This document shows positions 1-14,175 of a stretch of 22,835 nucleotides of DNA, one piece after another. Position 1 is the first letter of the stretch, and each line of letters starts with the position of its first letter. This stretch comes from a virus. The notes beneath the pieces were generated by a model. That model made no database searches and was not told the DNA's origin. It worked only from the letters and a program-made list of their open reading frames with translations. The stretch lies in the IMG/VR virus record IMGVR_UViG_3300025137_004281, positions 1 through 22,835 of that record, one strand, 5' to 3'. Both the position numbers and the translations under genes were made by a program.

Positions 1-658
1 CAACCACACCAGTGTTATCTGCTTTAACTTGATATGAAGGATCTCCTACAGCAACCCTAATTGTTTCGATTGCCATGTTAGGATATATGTTCTCACCAAT
101 CTTCATCAATAGTGGCACTCGTCTTACAACACCATCTATTTCTGGTGCTGTGTTAATAACACCTACACCTGCTGCACATTGACTTAAAAATAATTCTGGA
201 CCAACCATACCAGGCCACTCATATAAAAAGTTAAGAGGATTGCCTATCTTTGCAACACCTCTTGGTACTGCATTACTAGTTCTCTTTTGTGTCGTACCTA
301 CTTGAGCAATAACTGTGCCGTAACCTAATGCTTCACAGAAATATTCATCATGACCAAATCTATCAGGTTCACTAAACAATATAGGCATGACTATGATACC
401 TGTTTGTGCTTGTCGTAAATCTACAATCAAATCTGCTAGTACGTCTCTAGGCCATGGCCATTGACCATACTTCTCGATTGCTTCTTCGTCTATTGTTATG
501 ATTGTGATGTCTTGGGAAGGTGTGACTTCTTCGTTTGCAAGAAGATAGTCAAATGATTTTAAGCGTAGTGTTTCTTTGAATCCAGGATCCTGTAATCCAA
601 TATATGTCAACAATACCAAAGTAATAAAGGCAGTTGACCAATGGGTCAAATACTTCAT
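1..658 (-). CDS. CHASE2-domain protein, C-terminus outside window
   Basis: An open frame runs from an ATG at 656-658 to the window edge without a stop, giving about 219 residues. Residues 9-22 form a hydrophobic N-terminal segment (signal anchor or first membrane helix). The rest matches the extracytoplasmic CHASE2 sensory domain: an ITIIT-IDEEAI block near residues 51-61, the hallmark GQWPWPRD at 65-72, a later G-V-INTAPEIDGVVRRVP block and then MAIETIRVAVG. In bacteria CHASE2 usually sits ahead of three membrane helices and an output domain (adenylate cyclase, histidine kinase or diguanylate cyclase); here that part is not in view. The gene starts 8 bases after the second curlin-like gene and is the last visible member of the curli-type operon. 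No clear ribosome-binding site is seen. The CHASE2 call is strong; output activity is unknown. Confidence 0.85.
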   Translation of the reverse strand, partial: MKYLTHWSTAFITLVLLTYIGLQDPGFKETLRLKSFDYLLANEEVTPSQDITIITIDEEAIEKYGQWPWPRDVLADLIVDLRQAQTGIIVMPILFSEPDRFGHDEYFCEALGYGTVIAQVGTTQKRTSNAVPRGVAKIGNPLNFLYEWPGMVGPELFLSQCAAGVGVINTAPEIDGVVRRVPLLMKIGENIYPNMAIETIRVAVGDPSYQVKADNTGVV

Positions 659-666
659 ATTACTAT

Positions 667-1041
667 TTAGTTCTGATTAACTGTTAGAGTACAAAATGAA
701 TGACCACACCATAGTGTGTTCGAATAAGATTTGTTATTACCTGTTTGATTGAAATACATTGATGAGTTATTACTTGTTCTACCATCTACATTTACATCAA
801 GGCTATTACCGTCACCTATTTGATTTATAACAAGAATACCGCCATCCATACTCACTATATCAAAATCAATGACATTATTCTCGCCATCTTGTGTTATATC
901 TAAACTACCACCATCTGTTTGATCATCTACTGTTAATGTCAAATCATTTGCTCTAACTGGACTAGTCACGGCTGATAACGTAAGTAAGAACGCCATTAGA
1001 AACAACAAAAGGAGATTTTCTTTTAATATCTTTACGATCAT
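667..1041 (-). CDS. short curlin-like secreted protein
   Basis: A 124-aa protein with an N-terminal hydrophobic stretch and likely signal peptide (about residues 8-31, cleavage after VRA). The mature part carries degenerate curlin-type repeats of the strand-turn-strand pattern Q-x-G-x-x-N: LDITQDGENN, LVINQIGDGN, MYFNQTGNN and a final LTVNQN. Two cysteines near the C-terminus (LWCGHSFC) could form a disulfide. It has only about three to four repeats, fewer than CsgA (five longer ones), so it may be a nucleator or minor subunit by analogy with CsgB; that is inference. It lies in the same operon as csgF and csgG, downstream of the FecR and conserved small genes. An AAAGGA ribosome-binding site lies about 12 bases before ATG. 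Confidence 0.7.
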   Translation of the reverse strand: MIVKILKENLLLLFLMAFLLTLSAVTSPVRANDLTLTVDDQTDGGSLDITQDGENNVIDFDIVSMDGGILVINQIGDGNSLDVNVDGRTSNNSSMYFNQTGNNKSYSNTLWCGHSFCTLTVNQN

Positions 1042-1076
1042 ATTTTGTTTTATCCTTTACTACCCTTTTTCTATAT

Positions 1077-1433
1077 TTAGGTGTTCTTAGGTCTTTGGCT
1101 ATTGGGTTCTGTTTCTTCATTTTTTTCTTTTGTTTTCTTTTTCATTGCATTGATATAACTTCTATATACAGCAGCCTCTGCTGTTTTCCCCATAACTCTT
1201 GCTCTTTGTTCCATTGCAATTGCAGCTTGTATCTTATGTGCATGTGCTTTACCAGAATTTTTAATCTTGTTTACACTTGCTTTTGCTGTTGCAACATCTT
1301 TAAACCCTAGACCTTGTATTGTGCCTTTAGGGTTTTCGTCTGTGTACAAATCACTATGTTTATCTGAACCTGCAGGTTGACCTTTCTTTCTAGGTACTCT
1401 TTTTGCTTCAGTAAACTCTTTAAATGATTTCAT
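1077..1433 (-). CDS. conserved marine T4-like phage protein, basic and helical
   Basis: 118 aa, basic, with no signal peptide or membrane segment. It starts MKSFKEFTEA, a beginning I recognise from many marine T4-like phage proteins, and has a central block (GLGFKDVATAKASVNKI, then AHAHKIQAAIAMEQRAR) predicted to be helical, followed by a lysine-rich tail KKKTKEK. The family is common in cyanophages and related phages; its function is unknown to me. The start overlaps the FecR gene stop as ATGA (1430-1433), implying translational coupling. It is odd to find a cytoplasmic-looking phage core protein in the middle of an otherwise secreted gene set. Confidence 0.8.
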   Translation of the reverse strand: MKSFKEFTEAKRVPRKKGQPAGSDKHSDLYTDENPKGTIQGLGFKDVATAKASVNKIKNSGKAHAHKIQAAIAMEQRARVMGKTAEAAVYRSYINAMKKKTKEKNEETEPNSQRPKNT

Positions 1434-2557
1434 TGTATTTGTAATATATTAATTTCGTTTTCTTGACCTAATAGTTCGAAATCATACATTTCAAACTCAC
1501 CTTGTATAATATTTAGTATATATCCATACTCTTTATCTAATCTTAATTCAATATATGCACCAGAGGCGTCTTCTCGTATCCATACCCATTGTGGATCTTC
1601 ATCTAAGATAATGACACCAGTCTCAGCATTTTTACCTAAGAATATACCATCAGTTGATTGTTGTTTATCAAACTCGTTTCTCATTTGTTTTGCAAGTTCT
1701 TCATTGATCTGATCAAGTATATCTGCCAAGAAATTTTGTTGTAAAAAATCTATATCTAAACCTGTTACATATAAATCTTCTTCTTCCTCTAAGTAGTCAA
1801 CTTCTAAATCATCAAATTGTAAAAAGTCTAGGTCTAATGCGTCTGCAACTTCTTTTAATTTATCTTCATAGTTTTCTTCTTCTAGTTTTTCTGGTTTTGC
1901 AACAATCAACATGTTATTAATCATGTCTAATTCTAAATCTAATTTTACAGGTGGTGATGGTGGATTGACTGGTGAGTTTACTTGTGTTGCTTGAAATGCT
2001 TGATTAAGTATAATTTGACCTGCGTCTGTTTCTACACTAATCTCACCAACTAAACAATTACCTGCTACATCACATGATGGTAATAATATAATTGTACTGC
2101 CACCTAGTTCATCTATTGTCATTGTAAAGTCTGTACCACGAACACCTATGGTTGCTGTAGGTGTTGTTATCTTTATATCTTGTCTTGAATTTTTTGCAAT
2201 TTGTCCTGAGGCATATCTTATAGTACCAAGTTTTGCTTTGAGTGAAAGTTTACCTGTTTTGGTATTAGGGTCATAAACAAATTCATCTATGACAAGTTTA
2301 CTGTGTTGGGTAACATCTACTCTAGTATCATCAAGAAATAATATACCAACTTTACCATTGCCTGTTTTTACTGTATCAAATTGTTCTATTGATGTTTCTT
2401 CTTCTAAAAGAATATTTGTGTTGCCGTCTTTACGATCAACAACACCGTTGCCTTCTATCTGGTCAACGTTTCCTATGCTGGCCCAAGAAGGACCAGCATA
2501 AAATAATATTAATATTATTGTTGTCCACTTAGTCAGTTTGCGATATGTCAATATCAT
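1430..2557 (-). CDS. secreted FecR-domain protein
   Basis: About 375 aa from the ATG at 2555-2557. The frame is open further upstream to TTG/GTG codons, but the ATG gives a clean 26-residue signal peptide ending PSWA. Residues about 28-150 form a FecR-type domain: repeated short strands, DTVKTGNGKVGILFLDDTRV, TGKLSLKAKLGTIRY and the characteristic TPTATIGVRGTDF. A proline-rich linker (VNPPSPPVK) follows, then a very acidic region around residues 215-270 and a C-terminal beta-type segment. Classical FecR has an N-terminal anti-sigma part and an inner-membrane helix; neither is present, so this is a stand-alone periplasmic or exported FecR domain. It overlaps the end of the 226-aa curlin-like gene by 29 bases and the next gene by ATGA. 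In bacteria such FecR proteins often neighbour CHASE2 proteins, as here. Confidence 0.88.
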   Translation of the reverse strand: MILTYRKLTKWTTIILILFYAGPSWASIGNVDQIEGNGVVDRKDGNTNILLEEETSIEQFDTVKTGNGKVGILFLDDTRVDVTQHSKLVIDEFVYDPNTKTGKLSLKAKLGTIRYASGQIAKNSRQDIKITTPTATIGVRGTDFTMTIDELGGSTIILLPSCDVAGNCLVGEISVETDAGQIILNQAFQATQVNSPVNPPSPPVKLDLELDMINNMLIVAKPEKLEEENYEDKLKEVADALDLDFLQFDDLEVDYLEEEEDLYVTGLDIDFLQQNFLADILDQINEELAKQMRNEFDKQQSTDGIFLGKNAETGVIILDEDPQWVWIREDASGAYIELRLDKEYGYILNIIQGEFEMYDFELLGQENEINILQIQ

Positions 2558-3209
2558 GGTTGTCACCAACAGTTGTCAAGTTTATTATGTTATCATAAAC
2601 ACCACTTTGTGTGATATCTACGTCTGCGATTGAACCAGTATGGCTGTGAACTAAGGTGTGTCCGTTTACATCACCATTACCATTTATGTCAATTAAATAA
2701 TTATTTGTATCACCGTTTACAGTTAAAGTTAAGATAGCTGAAGTACCATCAATAGTGGCAGCAACAACGTTGCTATCACTTCCTGAGGCACCTGTTATAC
2801 TTACAGTAGCATTTGCAGCGTCAGCAGTCTCACCAATATCAATATCTATATCGTTACTACTACCTGCCCATACAATGGACGCTGTAGCAGTAGCACATGA
2901 GGAACCTGTCCCTGCGCTATCACAATTGAAATCAATATCGTTTGAGTTACCAGTCACATTAAATGTTCCTGTAAAACTTGCACCGTTTACGTCAAACTTT
3001 AAAACGTTACTATTACCAACTTGATCAATGTCGATAGTGGTAGTTGCACCAATCACGCTTGAAGCGGTTGTACTATTACCAACAGTATTGTTTTGTCCGT
3101 CTTGGGTAATGTCGAGGTCTAACGTAGCACCTGATTGTGTCACATAGATATCATTTGCCATTACCGGTAAGGTAAACAATATTAACAATGCGATTATTTT
3201 AGCGTACAT
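2529..3209 (-). CDS. curlin-like repeat protein, main secreted subunit candidate
   Basis: 226 aa. The signal peptide is residues 1-18 (cleavage after VMA). The mature chain is built of roughly nine degenerate strand-turn-strand repeats of 20-26 residues with the pattern hydrophobic-x-x-x-x-x-G-x-x-N, for example ITQDGQNN, IDQVGNSN, FNVTGNSND, VNGDTNN and ITQSGVYDN. This resembles the curlin repeats of CsgA/CsgB, but many Gln/Asn positions are replaced by Asp and Thr and the protein is strongly acidic. Two cysteines near the middle (NCDSAGTGSSC) are unusual for curlins. The ribosome-binding site is AGAGGAG, about 7 bases before ATG. It lies 4 bases after csgG, as expected for a substrate of that channel. 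An alternative is a non-amyloid beta-solenoid, but the context favours curlin. Confidence 0.8.
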   Translation of the reverse strand: MYAKIIALLILFTLPVMANDIYVTQSGATLDLDITQDGQNNTVGNSTTASSVIGATTTIDIDQVGNSNVLKFDVNGASFTGTFNVTGNSNDIDFNCDSAGTGSSCATATASIVWAGSSNDIDIDIGETADAANATVSITGASGSDSNVVAATIDGTSAILTLTVNGDTNNYLIDINGNGDVNGHTLVHSHTGSIADVDITQSGVYDNIINLTTVGDNHDIDISQTD

Positions 3210-3213
3210 TTTG

Positions 3214-4041
3214 TTACTCCTCTATTTTAAATTGCCATAATTCCTTTTCAATACCTTCATGTATCATATTAAAGATAGCATGTTCTATTGTAGTTCTTAT
3301 GGCGTAGTTAACAGGCTCATTAGTTGCGACACCTGTTTCGATTTCAAGGGCCTTCGTACTCATGTCAAGGAACCTGAATACATCACCACCACTTGAATAT
3401 GACGCTATCGTTTTCGTTGCTGATACTGTCATTAGGATTTCTCCTGTTTGTACTGCAACTATACGAAGCGAAACTGTTACTTGGTCTGTACGATATTGTT
3501 CATTTACACCTAATCCAAAATATCTTGCACCAACACCACCAGATGTAATATTGGAATCATATCCTACAATACCACCCTCTATAATAAGTCCTGCAAACTT
3601 TAGAGGTTTTAATTGATTTTTTACATCACTTTCTCCATCATATAATTCTCTTGTTGATCTGATTAATTGTCTTTCTTTAATAATCGAATCCAAACCTTGT
3701 CTTTCTAAAACTATAAACCATGGATTATAACCACCTACTGCTTTCAAAGCATTGATAACCCAAACTTCAGCACCTTGTGTTACTGCTGTTGATAACTGAC
3801 TAAATTTTTGACTTGGTTTTCTTTGACCTGTTCTATCAGGAAAGTTATAAACTGCAACAGTAATTTGTGCTTGTCCTAGTTCAGGTATTTTCTCTAATCT
3901 TTTCATGGTATCTGTTTCCATGGTGTATGGTGTGTCACCTTGGTAGAAACCATTTTCATTAAGTCCTTTGTTTGAAGCACAGCCACCCAGCATACACATT
4001 AAGGCCATCGCAATGGCGATTTGTGGTATTCCTAATTCCAT
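3214..4041 (-). CDS. csgG: CsgG-like curli secretion channel lipoprotein
   Basis: 275 aa, close to the 277 aa of E. coli CsgG. The N-terminus is a lipoprotein signal with lipobox LGGC (Cys21), which would place it in the outer membrane. Family signatures are visible along the chain: QITVAVYNFPDRTGQRKPS, WFIVLERQGLDSIIKERQLI, LIIEGGIVGYDSN, GGVGARYFGLG, RIVAVQTGEIL and the late ALEIETGVATNEPVNYAIR. CsgG forms a nonameric beta-barrel pore that lets unfolded curlin subunits cross the outer membrane. The start codon is one base past the csgF stop. There is no clear Shine-Dalgarno motif, so translation is probably coupled to csgF. No disabling change is visible. Confidence 0.96.
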   Translation of the reverse strand: MELGIPQIAIAMALMCMLGGCASNKGLNENGFYQGDTPYTMETDTMKRLEKIPELGQAQITVAVYNFPDRTGQRKPSQKFSQLSTAVTQGAEVWVINALKAVGGYNPWFIVLERQGLDSIIKERQLIRSTRELYDGESDVKNQLKPLKFAGLIIEGGIVGYDSNITSGGVGARYFGLGVNEQYRTDQVTVSLRIVAVQTGEILMTVSATKTIASYSSGGDVFRFLDMSTKALEIETGVATNEPVNYAIRTTIEHAIFNMIHEGIEKELWQFKIEE

Positions 4042-4042
4042 A

Positions 4043-4513
4043 TTAAAACTTAAAGTCGCCTACAGGTACTGACATTACTGTCGTTGAACCATCTGGTGAT
4101 GTAATTGTTAATGTGATTATTTCTGTGGTTGCGTCTTTAACCCAGTAGATTGTAGAACCTTCTACTTCCGCTGTACCACTTGATGGACATGTACCAGAAC
4201 ATTCTGTCCCGAACATATTATCTACTAACTGTTTTGATAAATTAGCATAAATTCTACTCTCTACGTTTTTAATAAACTTATTGATTGTAGTATTGTTTTC
4301 TAAACGAGCCGCTGCAGCTGCCGCTGACTTAGCGTCATCTGATACGTTCTTCTCTCTACTATATCTTAATTGTTCAAGTGACAGTACATGTGTACTGTAT
4401 CCACTTCCTGAAAAAGAAGGATTTTTAAAATCGTGTGTTAATTCGCTTGCGATACTAGGTGTCGAATACACATAAAATAATATTCCTAGCACCAAAATTT
4501 TTAGTGCTTTCAT
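4043..4513 (-). CDS. csgF: CsgF-like curli assembly factor
   Basis: 156 aa (E. coli CsgF is 138). The signal peptide is residues 1-22 (PSIAS). The mature N-terminus has the diagnostic HDFKNPSFSGSGYSTHVLSLEQ, matching the CsgF segment that inserts into the CsgG pore and forms a second constriction. The C-terminus ITLTITSPDGSTTVMSVPVGDF matches the CsgF tail. An alanine-rich stretch (KSAAAAAARLE) and a cysteine pair (TECSGTC) are insertions relative to the E. coli protein. CsgF couples secretion to surface nucleation. It is the first gene of the operon. A TATAAATA box ends 5 bases before its ATG, and no ribosome-binding site is seen. Confidence 0.92.
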   Translation of the reverse strand: MKALKILVLGILFYVYSTPSIASELTHDFKNPSFSGSGYSTHVLSLEQLRYSREKNVSDDAKSAAAAAARLENNTTINKFIKNVESRIYANLSKQLVDNMFGTECSGTCPSSGTAEVEGSTIYWVKDATTEIITLTITSPDGSTTVMSVPVGDFKF

Positions 4514-4518
4514 ACTAT

Positions 4519-4526
4519 TATTTATA
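4519..4526 (-). promoter_or_regulatory. TATAAATA late-promoter-like box before csgF
   Basis: The exact T4-type late promoter octamer TATAAATA lies on the minus strand immediately upstream of csgF. With usual late-promoter geometry the transcript would start at or within a base of the csgF ATG. A phage gp33 homologue is present in this window (8020-8238), consistent with a sliding-clamp-linked late transcription system. In such AT-rich DNA a few octamers per strand are expected by chance, so position is the main support. Confidence 0.5.
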
Positions 4527-4605
4527 ATAACATGTAGTCTAATATTGCAACAGTAGTAAAAGTTAATAGTATAATTGTTCCTACTATTATGCCGTTAGTC
4601 TTCAT
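4522..4605 (-). CDS. 27-aa single-pass membrane peptide
   Basis: A small ORF starting at the ATG at 4603-4605 and ending in TAA at 4522-4524. After MKTNG it is an almost unbroken hydrophobic helix (GIIVGTIILLTF, then VAILDYMLL). It overlaps the end of the preceding 104-aa membrane protein gene by 11 bases and ends 8 bases before csgF. There is no family match I recognise and no clear ribosome-binding site, so translation would rely on coupling. Its stop codon lies inside the late-promoter-like box for csgF. Confidence 0.45.
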   Translation of the reverse strand: MKTNGIIVGTIILLTFTTVAILDYMLL

Positions 4606-4909
4606 TATTTGCAGGTAATTTTTCTGCATTTTTACGCTCTCTTGAGCCAATTCTTTTTTCATTTTCTCTCATTTCTAATACAGTATTAAGTTTTGATCTT
4701 AAACGTATCAAGTCATTATCTAGCATTCTAATTCTATCAATTAGCGCTATGGTAGTAATCTGTGCCTTATCTAATTTTTCAATTATTTGTCCTGTAACAT
4801 AATTGTAAATAAAGTAAATAAACCAACCCATGGCAATTGCCGCTACTGTGGCAAATCCATATTGATTTAACATTTCTACAATAGGTGATGTTACTTCAAC
4901 TTCTATCAT
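4595..4909 (-). CDS. small membrane protein with cytoplasmic coiled coil
   Basis: 104 aa: a short N-terminal polar stretch, one strong transmembrane helix (about residues 18-37, ATVAAIAMGWFIYFIYNYV), then a charged amphipathic, probably coiled-coil segment (ALIDRIRMLDNDLIRLRSKL) and a basic tail. It is clearly paralogous to the 93-aa protein at 5006-5287 (same MG-FIY helix and DRI-ML-ND-LI-L pattern). The layout resembles small holin-like or BhlA-type phage membrane proteins, but I cannot assign a function. The start overlaps the end of the 36-aa ORF (ATGATAG around 4907). Confidence 0.8.
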   Translation of the reverse strand: MIEVEVTSPIVEMLNQYGFATVAAIAMGWFIYFIYNYVTGQIIEKLDKAQITTIALIDRIRMLDNDLIRLRSKLNTVLEMRENEKRIGSRERKNAEKLPANNED

Positions 4910-5006
4910 CTTTATCTTTTTCTAATTTTGCTAATAATGTCATTACACCTAAACTAATAGGTAATGCTATTAACAAAAATAATATAGCATGTTCAATAGT
5001 CCACAT
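4896..5006 (-). CDS. 36-aa single-pass membrane microprotein
   Basis: A small ORF between the two paralogous membrane protein genes. ATG at 5004-5006 overlaps the upstream TAA stop by one base (TAATG), and its own TGA at 4896-4898 lies 9-11 bases inside the downstream gene. After MWTIEHA it has a hydrophobic helix (ILFLLIALPISLGVMTLL) and a charged tail (AKLEKDKDDRS), a typical single-pass topology. The tight stop/start overlaps on both sides support it as a real gene. The family is unknown. Confidence 0.65.
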   Translation of the reverse strand: MWTIEHAILFLLIALPISLGVMTLLAKLEKDKDDRS

Positions 5007-5287
5007 TAGTCTTTCCTTGCGTCCTCTTTACCATCTGATCTAGATATTCTATCTAAATCTGGTCTTAACTGTAAGGCACTTGATATTAGTATATCTAGTT
5101 TTATCATGTCGTGGTTCATTGTCTTAATACGATTGTCTAAAGCAGATATTAACATGGTAATTGTTGCAACTTGTCCTACAACACCCGAGAGTATGTATTT
5201 AAGGATGATGTAAATAAAAAGACCCATTACCATAGCAGCGGCAACGGGTAGTCCAAAATCAACTAGTATTGTAAAGAATAGATCCAT
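5006..5287 (-). CDS. small membrane protein, paralogue of its neighbour
   Basis: 93 aa: a hydrophobic N-terminal region (LVDFGLPVAAAMVMGLFIYII, about residues 9-29) followed by a cytoplasmic amphipathic segment (ISALDNRIKTMNHDMIKLD) and a charged tail. It is a tandem paralogue of the 104-aa protein at 4595-4909. It is the first gene after the gp32 hairpin. A TATAAATA box ends 4 bases before its ATG and no Shine-Dalgarno motif is present, the same arrangement as csgF. The function is unknown; holin-like or membrane-scaffold roles are possible. Confidence 0.8.
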   Translation of the reverse strand: MDLFFTILVDFGLPVAAAMVMGLFIYIILKYILSGVVGQVATITMLISALDNRIKTMNHDMIKLDILISSALQLRPDLDRISRSDGKEDARKD

Positions 5288-5291
5288 GTTC

Positions 5292-5299
5292 TATTTATA
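5292..5299 (-). promoter_or_regulatory. TATAAATA late-promoter-like box
   Basis: An exact T4 late-promoter octamer on the minus strand, 4 bases upstream of the ATG of the 93-aa membrane protein gene and just downstream of the gp32 hairpin. It would begin a late unit covering the small membrane proteins and possibly the curli-type operon. The predicted start of transcription coincides with the start codon. Confidence 0.5.
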
Positions 5300-5349: not shown

Positions 5350-6252
5350 TTAGTCGTTAACTAATTTACTAAAGTAATTCATAGTATCGTCCTCATCATT
5401 ACTAGGGGAGGTATCTGATTGAGGAGGTTCACTTACTTTAGGCTCACTAACTGGTACCTCAACAGCACTTACAGGTGGGATATCTATCTCGTCTGCTGTT
5501 GTGGTTTTTCCTGTACCATAAACTACTTTTTCAAACTTGGCTTTCAAGTCGTCATATGATTTGTAGTTCGTGGTAGCAGAAAACTCTTTTAATGGTAATT
5601 GTTTTTTCCACAATTCTTCTATTTGTTCGTCCGTATCTTTTACTCTAGATGGACCTTCAAATTCAGATTTGTCGTAGTTCCAATAACCATCAACTTTTCT
5701 AATTTTTAACTTGAAGTTAGCACCTTCCCAAAAATCAAATGGGTTGATTGCTTTTTCATCAGCAAACTCAGGTTTCATTGCTTCAGTAATCTTATCAAAA
5801 ATTTTCTTACCAAATTTATATAAGAATGTTCTACCTTCATTCTCCGGGTGTGCCGGGTCTGAAACTATAACTATGTTAGTAAAGTAGGAAAGTTTTCTTT
5901 TTCTTTTTCTGGCGATCTCTTTATCTGCCTCGGAACCAGTATTCCATAGTTTAGAATTTTCTTCACTTACTGGATCTTTTTGACCAAGTGTGGTCAAACT
6001 ATTCTCAATATACCAACCACCAGGTCCTTGAAAGGCATGAGACCAAACTCTCGCCCAAGGTAATTCTTCTCCTTCTACGGCAGGTAAAAAACGAATTACT
6101 GCATAACCATTACCAGTTTTATCTAGTTCAGGTTTCCAGAATCTATCGTCACTTGATGAATTTTTGTTTGTTGTTGGGGATGTAACCTTTTCTAACTCTT
6201 TGGTTAGTTTGTCGAAGTTACCACGACTTTGTTTTAGATTTGCGAATGACAT
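5350..6252 (-). CDS. 32: gp32-like single-stranded DNA-binding protein
   Basis: 300 aa, nearly the length of T4 gp32 (301). It starts MSFANLKQSRGNFDKL as in marine T4-like gp32 proteins. The core has the conserved FLPA, PWARVWSHAFQGPGGWYIENSLTTLG, DPVSEEN and IVIVSDPAHPENEG-TFLYKFGKKI blocks of the OB-fold DNA-binding domain. The C-terminus is acidic and Pro/Ser-rich (from about residue 255) and ends DEDDTMNYFSKLVND, the segment that in T4 contacts replication partners. There is no cysteine anywhere, so the zinc site of T4 gp32 (one His, three Cys) is missing. A good AAAGGAG ribosome-binding site precedes ATG. A long structured leader lies upstream (6253-6559). Confidence 0.95.
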   Translation of the reverse strand: MSFANLKQSRGNFDKLTKELEKVTSPTTNKNSSSDDRFWKPELDKTGNGYAVIRFLPAVEGEELPWARVWSHAFQGPGGWYIENSLTTLGQKDPVSEENSKLWNTGSEADKEIARKRKRKLSYFTNIVIVSDPAHPENEGRTFLYKFGKKIFDKITEAMKPEFADEKAINPFDFWEGANFKLKIRKVDGYWNYDKSEFEGPSRVKDTDEQIEELWKKQLPLKEFSATTNYKSYDDLKAKFEKVVYGTGKTTTADEIDIPPVSAVEVPVSEPKVSEPPQSDTSPSNDEDDTMNYFSKLVND

Positions 6253-10234: not shown

Positions 10235-10396
10235 TTAATCTCTAGTAAAAAACGGATCTGGTTTTTTATTAGTTTTCTGTATTTCTTGTAATACTTTCAT
10301 AAACTTGTCAAACTCTTTATGTGCGGTATATCTACCCACTTTATATGCAATAAAAAGAGATAAACAAGCAATAATTGTATGTGTTACTGCGTCCAC
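10235..10396 (-). CDS. 53-aa membrane protein directly after endolysin
   Basis: A small ORF starting at GTG (10394-10396), 13 bases inside the 3' end of the endolysin gene, stop TAA at 10235-10237. It has a hydrophobic helix THTIIACLSLFIAYKVG (residues 5-21), then a charged helical tail with KEFDKFMKVLQEIQKTNKK and PDPFF near the end. The position after the endolysin suggests a lysis role (holin or regulator), but single-pass membrane proteins are frequent throughout this window, so this stays inference. Confidence 0.65.
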   Translation of the reverse strand: MDAVTHTIIACLSLFIAYKVGRYTAHKEFDKFMKVLQEIQKTNKKPDPFFTRD

Positions 10397-10896
10397 GTTT
10401 TTGCCTTTTCAGTTACTTCATCAACTCGTCTAGTCCAACCTCTACCAAAAGTCTCAAATGTAGATAGACTTCCGTAATAGTTATGTCTAGCGGATTGATA
10501 TTGGTCTATTGTAGTAGAAACACCATATTTCTCTACATGGTCATTAATACATTTTATAGTATTTGGACCTATGCCGCCATCAACTGTGGTATTTACTAAT
10601 CGTTGTATAAATTTTGCAGCACGACCAGGACCAGCATTGACAGCAAAGTCAAAGATACATAAATCTAAACCTTCTGGTAGATCGTCACCTTTTACTCTAT
10701 CCCAATAATTTTTTTTATATATTGGTTCAACATCTTCTTTTACTAATTCTTTCATTTCTTTTTCACCACCAAAGTCTTCGTAAACTCTTTTAGTTACGCC
10801 AAGGTTTGTTTCGCCACCTGGATCTTTTGGATGATTTACATATCCACCTTCATGGTGTAATATGACTTCTAATGCTTCTGAAAATTTATTACTCAT
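10384..10896 (-). CDS. endolysin, GH108-type N-acetylmuramidase
   Basis: 170 aa. The N-terminal catalytic domain has the diagnostic ILHHEGGYVNHPKDPGGETNLGVT (Glu of HEGGY is the predicted catalytic residue; DPGG-TNxGVT binds substrate), followed by YKKNYWDRVKGDDLP and LCIFDFAVNAGPGRAAKFIQR. The C-terminal part (VDGGIGPNTIKCIN) matches the peptidoglycan-binding domain that usually completes GH108 proteins. There is no signal peptide, so export would need a holin. The start overlaps the phoH stop region by 8 bases; the 53-aa membrane ORF follows. Confidence 0.92.
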   Translation of the reverse strand: MSNKFSEALEVILHHEGGYVNHPKDPGGETNLGVTKRVYEDFGGEKEMKELVKEDVEPIYKKNYWDRVKGDDLPEGLDLCIFDFAVNAGPGRAAKFIQRLVNTTVDGGIGPNTIKCINDHVEKYGVSTTIDQYQSARHNYYGSLSTFETFGRGWTRRVDEVTEKAKTWTQ

Positions 10897-13427: not shown

Positions 13428-13556
13428 CTAATAATATTTAACATTTAACATCATAGCATACAACTTATGAAACCAGATATACTTCATGTCTTCTGGTGCA
13501 TTGTTATATGCATTTTCAAGATTTGAAACTCTTTTCCAAAATAAATTATAATTCAT
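13428..13556 (-). CDS. 42-aa conserved-looking small protein
   Basis: A small ORF with a GAGGG ribosome-binding site 5 bases before ATG (13554-13556), overlapping the end of the glucosaminidase gene by 11 bases; stop TAG at 13428-13430. The soluble helical peptide starts MNYNLFWKRVSNLENAYNNA and continues PEDMKYIWFHKLYAMM. The charge pattern and ribosome-binding site suggest a real small phage protein; function unknown. Confidence 0.65.
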   Translation of the reverse strand: MNYNLFWKRVSNLENAYNNAPEDMKYIWFHKLYAMMLNVKYY

Positions 13557-14175
13557 ATTTTCCCTCTATGTTATATTTGATTACTTTTTTTACTAATTCT
13601 GTATATGTTTTTTTTGTTGCATAACCATCTAGAGTATCCACAAGATCATAAACATTAGCATTTTGTGCTCTCAACTCTCTAAATTTTTCATAGGCAAAAA
13701 CTGTATTTAATATTCTAACATATGCTTTTACGCTATCACATTTTGTATCGTAAACTTTTACACCCCAACCAATCCATTTGTTTTGATCCCAGGTTACTGG
13801 TAATAACCATTTACTATCTTTACTAAATGTACGAATACCAAATAGATTATTACCTTCGTTGGCAAATCTACTTGACCCCCAACCAGTTTCCAATACTGAT
13901 TGTGCGATTAATATTTCTTTTGGTATGTGTTGTGATACTGGTAAGTCTTTGTAGATATAATCTACACAAGCATTTAAACTTGAAACAAATGTATCTTTAT
14001 TTGTCGTATCAATAACTGGTTCTAAATCTACCATTGATACTTTTTCGACAGGTACCTTAATTGTAATTTCAAGTGGTACTGAAACTGTCTGTACGTCTTT
14101 ATGTTTTATATCTGTAAATGCAACCAAGTAACAACCTGCAATTGCAATTAGAGATAATAAGATTTTCATTTTCAT
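13546..14175 (-). CDS. Bax-like glucosaminidase, probable lipoprotein
   Basis: 209 aa. The N-terminus is a hydrophobic signal with possible lipobox IAGC (Cys15). The C-terminal half has the GH73/Bax-family signature IPKEILIAQSVLETGWGSSR followed by FANEGNNLFGIRTF; the Glu of ETGWG is the predicted catalytic acid. Such enzymes cleave the glycan strand of peptidoglycan. This is the second wall hydrolase in the window, but unlike the GH108 endolysin it carries its own export signal. AGAGAGG lies about 9 bases before ATG. It could act in lysis, in wall remodelling for secretion, or against superinfection. Confidence 0.85.
   Translation of the reverse strand: MKMKILLSLIAIAGCYLVAFTDIKHKDVQTVSVPLEITIKVPVEKVSMVDLEPVIDTTNKDTFVSSLNACVDYIYKDLPVSQHIPKEILIAQSVLETGWGSSRFANEGNNLFGIRTFSKDSKWLLPVTWDQNKWIGWGVKVYDTKCDSVKAYVRILNTVFAYEKFRELRAQNANVYDLVDTLDGYATKKTYTELVKKVIKYNIEGKYEL

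What the first reader, a model, noticed from the sequence alone, without database searches (positions are those of the whole stretch)
1..4513. Phage-encoded curli-type secretion operon with its own cargo
Seven consecutive, tightly packed minus-strand genes encode CsgF, CsgG, a 226-aa curlin-like protein, a FecR-domain protein, a small phage protein, a second short curlin-like protein and a CHASE2 protein, inside what is otherwise a T4-like phage genome. CsgG and CsgF are seen clearly. Accessory curli genes (csgB, csgC, csgD, csgE) are absent. Established: CsgG forms an outer-membrane pore and CsgF caps it to nucleate fibres. Inferred: the phage builds an export channel late in infection and coats the host or progeny with amyloid-like fibre. 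Possible uses are superinfection exclusion, cell aggregation or weakening of the outer membrane at lysis. I recall CsgG-like genes being noted in marine T4-like phages; the full set with sensory proteins may be new.
Basis: partly seen in the sequence, partly recalled or inferred. Interest (0 to 1): 0.9.

Follow-up and report, generated by a model that had tools for sequence, protein, structure and literature searches.

The report
Pelagiphage late-expressed curli secretion module
This marine T4-like virus carries a known set of genes for building sticky curli-type fibres on the cell it infects; new here are signs that the genes are switched on late in infection and that one fibre protein carries an exchangeable, sugar-binding-type tip.

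Summary
In detail: seven packed minus-strand genes encode CsgF, CsgG, two curlin-like proteins, a FecR-domain protein, an inserted phage protein and a CHASE2 protein. Two small membrane proteins upstream (4595-5287) belong to the same module. The contig is not chimeric: the order recurs in about 80 viral contigs, HTVC008M and Melnitz.

It is not a discovery. Zaragoza-Solas 2020, Buchholz 2022 and Wittmers 2022 describe this pelagiphage type VIII secretion module, FecR and adenylate cyclase included.

What I add:
(1) An exact T4 late promoter (TATAAATA) precedes csgF in 32 of 33 dereplicated loci, so the operon is late.
(2) The first curlin is the most constrained gene (median dN/dS 0.10). The second is fast (0.35) and modular: near-identical phages swap its N-terminal domain between a conserved signal peptide and conserved curlin repeats; HTVC008M carries PA14 there.
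(3) The FecR protein ends in the same C-terminal signature as the first curlin, so it is probably exported or fibre-associated, not an iron regulator.
(4) The ORFs in the published 'histidine kinase' position have no kinase domain.
(5) CsgF keeps its CsgG-anchoring motif.

Best reading: a late-built channel displaying an adhesive fibre with exchangeable payload. Function is untested.

The parts
2..658 (-). CHASE2 domain, N-terminal part of a CHASE2 + class III adenylate cyclase (truncated by the window edge)
   Evidence: Pfam CHASE2 1.9e-28; phrog_35576, 681-aa profile; complete relatives carry Guanylate_cyc with the KYMGD and SVIGDAVNLAARLE motifs
667..1041 (-). curlin2: short variable curlin-like cargo (124 aa), signal peptide, C-terminal C-x4-C...NQN
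   Evidence: Curlin_rpt 18.8 bits, below cut-off; NCBIfam CsgA 5e-5; same position as the long domain-bearing curlin2 of relatives
1077..1433 (-). inserted phage protein (phrog_727); core about 84% identical to the N-terminal part of Synechococcus phage Bellamy gp123, two genes after a putative tail fibre; absent from the HTVC008M and Melnitz modules
1430..2569 (-). signal-peptide-led FecR-domain protein with a curlin-like C-terminus; an internal ATG at 2557 is a possible start
   Evidence: Pfam FecR 4e-9; phrog_37870; C-terminal signature in 51 of 52 homologues
2529..3209 (-). curlin1: fixed-length (226 aa) curlin-like cargo
   Evidence: AF2 model all-beta, pLDDT 72.9; best BFVD matches 'Curlin associated'
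3214..4041 (-). CsgG outer-membrane secretion channel lipoprotein (lipobox LGGC)
   Evidence: Pfam 5e-52; E. coli CsgG structures E 4e-52
4043..4513 (-). CsgF with conserved F-x-N-P-x-F CsgG-anchoring motif
   Evidence: Pfam 1.7e-11; alignment with E. coli CsgF
4519..4526 (-). T4-type late promoter TATAAATA, 13 nt before the csgF ATG
4522..4662 (-). 46-aa single-TM microprotein overlapping the 3' end of the upstream ORF; its stop codon overlaps the late promoter
   Evidence: a similar ORF in 45 of 76 loci; annotated as a 41-aa hypothetical in HTVC008M
4595..4909 (-). TMb: small membrane protein with a helical tail (phrog_18771); occupies the position called HK in the literature but has no kinase domain
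5006..5287 (-). TMa: paralogue of TMb; found only in phages with the curli module
5292..5299 (-). T4-type late promoter TATAAATA before TMa
5350..6252 (-). gp32 single-strand DNA-binding protein: phage core gene flanking the module
   Evidence: Pfam gp32 2e-44

Best explanation
This is the pelagimyophage type VIII secretion module. Shown: the genes, their order, T4 late promoters in front of csgF and of the small membrane proteins, purifying selection on the components (weakest on curlin2), a cyclase domain with standard motifs in complete pelagimyophage relatives, and cassette exchange in curlin2. Inferred: after DNA replication the phage sigma factor gp55 reads the operon. CsgG, docked by CsgF, forms an ungated outer-membrane channel. 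Curlin1 is exported as the fixed fibre subunit or base. Curlin2, whose N-terminal domain is exchangeable (PA14 in HTVC008M, two other domains elsewhere), is displayed on it as the variable adhesive payload. The FecR protein, which ends in the same C-terminal signature as curlin1, attaches to the fibre or its base and, with the CHASE2 cyclase in the inner membrane, reports envelope or fibre state as cAMP. The infected cell or its debris becomes sticky shortly before lysis, so progeny are released close to new host cells.
For: Family hits. Syntenic module in about 80 viral contigs, HTVC008M and Melnitz. Exact TATAAATA before csgF in 32 of 33 dereplicated loci, before TMa in 17 of 29, and in none of the sets for the other six module genes tested; random stretches 6%. 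In HTVC008M the motif is 20:1 strand-biased, precedes 5 of 28 structural and 0 of 20 replication genes, with csgF spacing identical to that of gp2 and gp25. Curlin1 is the most constrained gene tested (median dN/dS 0.096, gp32 0.148) and curlin2 the least (0.348). PA14 above its cut-off fused to curlin repeats in HTVC008M. Cassette swap between L072 and L073: FecR DNA 99.4%, curlin2 signal peptide 98.5%, N-domain about 25% aa, repeats 97.7% DNA. C-terminal signature in curlin1 64/65 and FecR 51/52, but 0/523 unassigned ORFs. CsgF keeps F26, N28, P29 and F31 of E. coli; F24, F26 and F31 substitutions disrupt CsgG binding (PMC10133297).
Against: No clumping was seen in Melnitz-infected cultures (PMC9004378). 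CsgE is absent, which in E. coli raises curli release almost 20-fold (PMC7029224). The window's own curlin2 is short (124 aa) with no recognisable payload domain. The AF2 model of FecR failed (pLDDT 31.8), and curlin1 has no significant match to a solved structure. Most Pelagibacter genomes sampled have no recognisable cAMP effector (cNMP-binding domain in 8 of 81), so the cyclase output has no obvious target. Melnitz has lost a catalytic cyclase residue. PMC7029224 reports that late-promoter prediction was unsuccessful in pelagimyophages.
Confidence: 0.5

Rival explanations
1. Lysis timing: phage CsgG acts as a pinholin- or secretin-like outer-membrane pore that helps depolarise or open the envelope, and CsgF has diverged to another role (Buchholz 2022).
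For: Late expression fits lysis; no CsgE gate; no clumping in Melnitz cultures (PMC9004378).
Against: Does not explain why curlin1 is the most constrained gene, why FecR and curlin1 share a C-terminus, or why curlin2 swaps domains. CsgF keeps the CsgG-docking motif. The window encodes peptidoglycan-cleaving enzymes elsewhere (10384-10896, 13546-14175).
Confidence: 0.13
2. Superinfection exclusion: the exported fibre coats the infected cell and blocks competing phages.
For: Surface location; a variable payload could reflect an arms race. Proposed in PMC9599517.
Against: Late promoters would leave most of the infection unprotected; T4's exclusion genes imm and sp are expressed early (own knowledge).
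Confidence: 0.15
3. Uptake pore: ungated CsgG lets in macromolecules, cofactors or siderophores, with FecR as an iron regulator.
For: Absence of CsgE; FecR domain name; proposed in PMC7029224 and PMC9599517.
Against: The FecR protein has a signal peptide and a curlin-like tail; Pfam finds no anti-sigma part and the module has no ECF sigma factor. Uptake late in infection is of little use, and it does not explain the curlins.
Confidence: 0.07
4. The secreted curlin proteins decorate released virions (a virion accessory fibre made through the host outer membrane) rather than the cell.
For: Late expression together with structural genes; a virion-type gene pair (507 and 1446 aa, tail-fibre-like by inspection) is inserted in the same slot in L045.
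Against: Virions are assembled in the cytoplasm while the cargo has signal peptides and an outer-membrane exporter; contact would be only after lysis.
Confidence: 0.1

Closest known systems
Pelagiphage T8SS/curli module (HTVC008M, Melnitz, HTVC023P-type podophages; PMC7029224, PMC9004378, PMC9599517)
   Same: Same genes in the same order: two small upstream ORFs, CsgF, CsgG, curlin, FecR, curlin, CHASE2 adenylate cyclase.
   Different: The window has an inserted phrog_727 protein and a short curlin2 (124 aa against 441 in HTVC008M). The small upstream ORFs lack any kinase domain, against the published HK label.
E. coli curli system (CsgABCDEFG)
   Same: CsgG (180 bits), CsgF N-terminal motif, curlin-type repeats.
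   Different: CsgE absent, and no CsgC or CsgD among the module ORFs scanned. CsgG constriction residues Y51/N55/F56 are not conserved (S or Q, Q and L in the alignment; numbering from own knowledge). FecR and cyclase added.
Hyphomonas TMED17 chromosomal locus (L100)
   Same: CsgF-CsgG-curlin-FecR-CHASE2/cyclase on a 705-kb bacterial contig.
   Different: No TMa or TMb; a single 504-aa curlin; FecR lacks the curlin-like C-terminus. The only one of 105 genomes of its family with this FecR type.
CHASE2 adenylate cyclases of Sinorhizobium meliloti (CyaD1, CyaD2, CyaK) with the outer-membrane barrel NsrA (PMC13001267)
   Same: CHASE2 cyclase linked to an outer-membrane barrel protein.
   Different: The S. 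meliloti pathway acts through the CRP-family regulator Clr; most sampled Pelagibacter genomes have no cNMP-binding protein. A functional analogy only.

Membership tests
Type VIII secretion system (curli) | CsgG outer-membrane lipoprotein | tested here: met
   PF03783 176.7 bits, cut-off 20.8; lipobox LGGC by inspection; E 4e-52 to E. coli CsgG
Type VIII secretion system (curli) | CsgF with N-terminal CsgG-anchoring motif | tested here: met
   PF10614 44.8 bits, cut-off 25.8; F26, N28, P29 and F31 retained, F24 replaced by H
Type VIII secretion system (curli) | secreted curlin-repeat cargo (CsgA/CsgB) | tested here: inconclusive
   Window proteins are below the Pfam cut-off but their motifs exceed shuffles; the HTVC008M curlin2 homologue is above it
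Type VIII secretion system (curli) | periplasmic gate CsgE | tested here: not met
   PF10627 absent in the window, HTVC008M and Melnitz; the published pelagiphage modules also lack it, and it is not essential for curli (PMC9599517, PMC7029224)
Type VIII secretion system (curli) | amyloid fibre formation by the exported proteins | not testable with these tools
   Curlin1 AF2 model all-beta but only moderately confident (pLDDT 72.9), no solved-structure match at E <= 0.001
FecR-type iron/ECF-sigma regulator | cytoplasmic anti-sigma domain plus partner ECF sigma factor | tested here: not met
   Signal peptide by inspection, Pfam finds only PF04773 at 65-158, no sigma factor in the module
Histidine kinase (published label of the upstream ORFs) | HisKA/HATPase domains | tested here: not met
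   93 and 104 aa; no Pfam or NCBIfam kinase match. That these are the published HK ORFs rests on position; the paper's supplement was not read.
Class III adenylate cyclase | catalytic motifs intact | tested here: inconclusive
   The window protein is truncated before the domain; complete relatives have K(Y/F)MGD and YSV(I/V)GD(A/S)VNLAARLE. Melnitz has VSTAAR in place of VNLAAR.
T4-type late operon | TATAAATA promoter at operon head | tested here: met
   4519-4526 and 5292-5299; 32 of 33 dereplicated csgF loci

The most novel reading that the evidence does not exclude
Curli has been turned by these phages into a late-expressed surface-display platform: a fixed curlin scaffold (curlin1) and an exported FecR-curlin protein carry an interchangeable lectin-like payload (curlin2), exchanged between near-identical phages as receptor-binding tips are, so that a dying host cell captures specific neighbours or particles.
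Probability: 0.3. Interest if true: 0.85.

Novelty: new member of a known kind. Interest (0 to 1): 0.45.

Why it matters
Pelagiphages infect some of the most numerous bacteria on Earth, whose genomes lack curli (CsgG in 3 of 147 family genomes, all on phage-type contigs). If infected cells become adhesive just before lysis, it would change how phage encounter rates, aggregation and recombination in dilute ocean water are understood. The late promoter and the swappable payload turn a stalled question (what is phage curli for?) into specific tests on an isolate already in culture, HTVC008M.

Tried and rejected
A capsid-targeting reading of the MKSFKEFTEA start of the 118-aa protein was dropped: no annotated head protein of HTVC008M begins with such a motif, and the core is shared with a cyanophage protein near a putative tail fibre. 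A defence-system reading: no PADLOC match for any module protein. Structure of the FecR protein: the model failed. Curlin1 against solved structures: nothing at E <= 0.001 and no profile hit. A phage-encoded cAMP receptor: none in HTVC008M or Melnitz. A chimeric contig was rejected by synteny. The OR851715 'Salmonella phage' hit was set aside: an unverified, unannotated 1.5-kb contig. Two genome searches failed because they named a locus where a genome handle was needed and were repeated with handles.
Full report
WHAT IS THERE. The window is a 22.8-kb virus record from a T4-like phage related to pelagiphage HTVC008M. Window genes include gp32, PhoH, RNase H, NAD synthase, UDP-glucose dehydrogenase and two peptidoglycan-cleaving enzymes. 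The two curlin-like proteins are weak by Pfam (18.8 and 14.6 bits against a cut-off of 20.7) but have a signal peptide by inspection and more Q.G..N motifs than shuffles (p about 0.001).

PRIOR ART. The module is published: CsgF/CsgG in pelagimyophages (PMC7029224), Melnitz (PMC9004378), and the full set with curlins, FecR and adenylate cyclase in podo- and myo-pelagiphages (PMC9599517). HTVC008M and Melnitz have the same gene order. The finding as given is therefore a new member of a known kind.

EXTENT. The order gp32-TMa-TMb-CsgF-CsgG-curlin1-FecR-[insert]-curlin2-CHASE2/cyclase holds in about 80 viral contigs wherever the contig reaches. Exceptions: FecR is split in L020, and no curlin2 was recognised in L025. 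In some clades other phage genes sit between gp32 and TMa. TMa occurs in 6 of 50,697 phage records, all of them curli phages. Neither TMa nor TMb has a kinase domain, although ORFs in that position are called histidine kinases in PMC9599517. A small membrane microprotein (46 aa in the window) lies before csgF in 45 of 76 loci.

TIMING. An exact TATAAATA lies just upstream of the csgF start in 32 of 33 dereplicated loci and of TMa in 17 of 29; it is in none of the dereplicated sets for TMb, CsgG, curlin1, FecR, curlin2 and CHASE2 (random 170-mers 6%). The motif also precedes gp32 in 14 of 21. In HTVC008M it is found 20 times on the + strand and once on the minus strand. It precedes structural genes gp2, gp25, gp8, gp18 and gp20 and none of 20 replication genes, with the csgF distance equal to that of gp2 and gp25. 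In the window, on the minus strand, it sits at 4519-4526 and 5292-5299; only two other copies occur. PMC7029224 states that late-promoter prediction was unsuccessful in these phages.

CARGO. Median pairwise dN/dS: curlin1 0.096, TMa 0.106, TMb 0.141, gp32 0.148, cyclase 0.152, CsgF 0.160, FecR 0.191, CsgG 0.199, curlin2 0.348. These are pairwise medians on related sequences. Curlin1 is nearly fixed at 226 aa; complete curlin2 copies run from 117 to 497 aa. HTVC008M curlin2 has PA14 (27.7 bits, cut-off 24) before its curlin repeats. L072 and L073 differ in this gene chiefly in the N-terminal domain: FecR DNA 99.4%, signal peptide 98.5%, N-domain about 25% aa, last 650 nt 97.7%. Two N-domain types, one ThuA-like only below cut-off, alternate in two phage groups.

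FecR. The protein begins with a signal peptide. Its C-terminus matches a signature shared with curlin1 (51/52 and 64/65 homologues) and with none of 523 unassigned ORFs. The pattern was drawn from these proteins, so the specificity rather than the sensitivity is informative. The bacterial Hyphomonas homologue lacks it.

CHANNEL. CsgF keeps F26, N28, P29 and F31 of E. coli CsgF. Substitutions at F24, F26 or F31 disrupt CsgG binding (PMC10133297). This speaks against the suggestion that phage CsgF no longer pairs with CsgG.

SIGNALLING. Complete relatives carry a cyclase domain with standard motifs; Melnitz has lost the Asn. The sampled Pelagibacter genomes have no class III cyclase (0 of 81) and mostly no cNMP-binding protein (8 of 81), and HTVC008M and Melnitz encode none. 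What reads the cAMP is unexplained. In S. meliloti CHASE2 cyclases respond through an outer-membrane barrel protein (PMC13001267), a possible analogy.

ORIGIN. Canonical alphaproteobacterial curli loci fetched have CsgG, mostly with CsgF, and several curlins, without FecR or CHASE2. One Hyphomonas MAG contig (705 kb) has CsgF-CsgG-curlin-FecR-CHASE2/cyclase, the only one of 105 family genomes with this FecR type. This fits the published alphaproteobacterial origin. Phage-type modules also turn up on contigs binned as Flavobacteriaceae, Saprospirales, Sphingobacteriales and Rhodobacteraceae, probably misbinned phage.

VERDICT. The added evidence favours a late, cargo-exporting display role over uptake or decay, but no functional test exists.

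Noticed in passing
L065:5739-6482 and L062:5704-6447: A SoxY-SoxZ fusion protein (Pfam 2.4e-25 and 5e-16 in L065) is inserted between FecR and curlin2 in L065, with a near-identical ORF in L062: a sulfur-oxidation carrier inside the curli module.
   Followed up: partly
L045:10601-16473: The slot between FecR and curlin2 holds a 507-aa extended phrog_727-type protein and a 1446-aa tail-fibre-like protein (by inspection): virion-type genes inside the curli module.
   Followed up: no
window 4522-4662: 46-aa single-TM microprotein whose stop codon overlaps the csgF late promoter; a similar ORF in 45 of 76 loci.
   Followed up: partly
window 4896-5006: A further 36-aa single-TM ORF between TMa and TMb (MWTIEHAILFLLIALPISLG...).
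   Followed up: no
L083 (Melnitz) CHASE2 cyclase: The catalytic Asn of the class III cyclase motif is replaced (VSTAAR instead of VNLAAR); the cyclase may be inactive in this phage.
   Followed up: no
L096, L108, L156, L091, L175, L176: Phage-type curli modules on contigs binned as Flavobacteriaceae, Saprospirales, Sphingobacteriales, Rhodobacteraceae and Pelagibacteraceae genomes; probably misbinned phage contigs.
   Followed up: partly
window 1077-1433: phrog_727 core is about 84% identical to a Synechococcus phage protein, much closer than expected for pelagiphage against cyanophage: a recently exchanged unit.
   Followed up: partly
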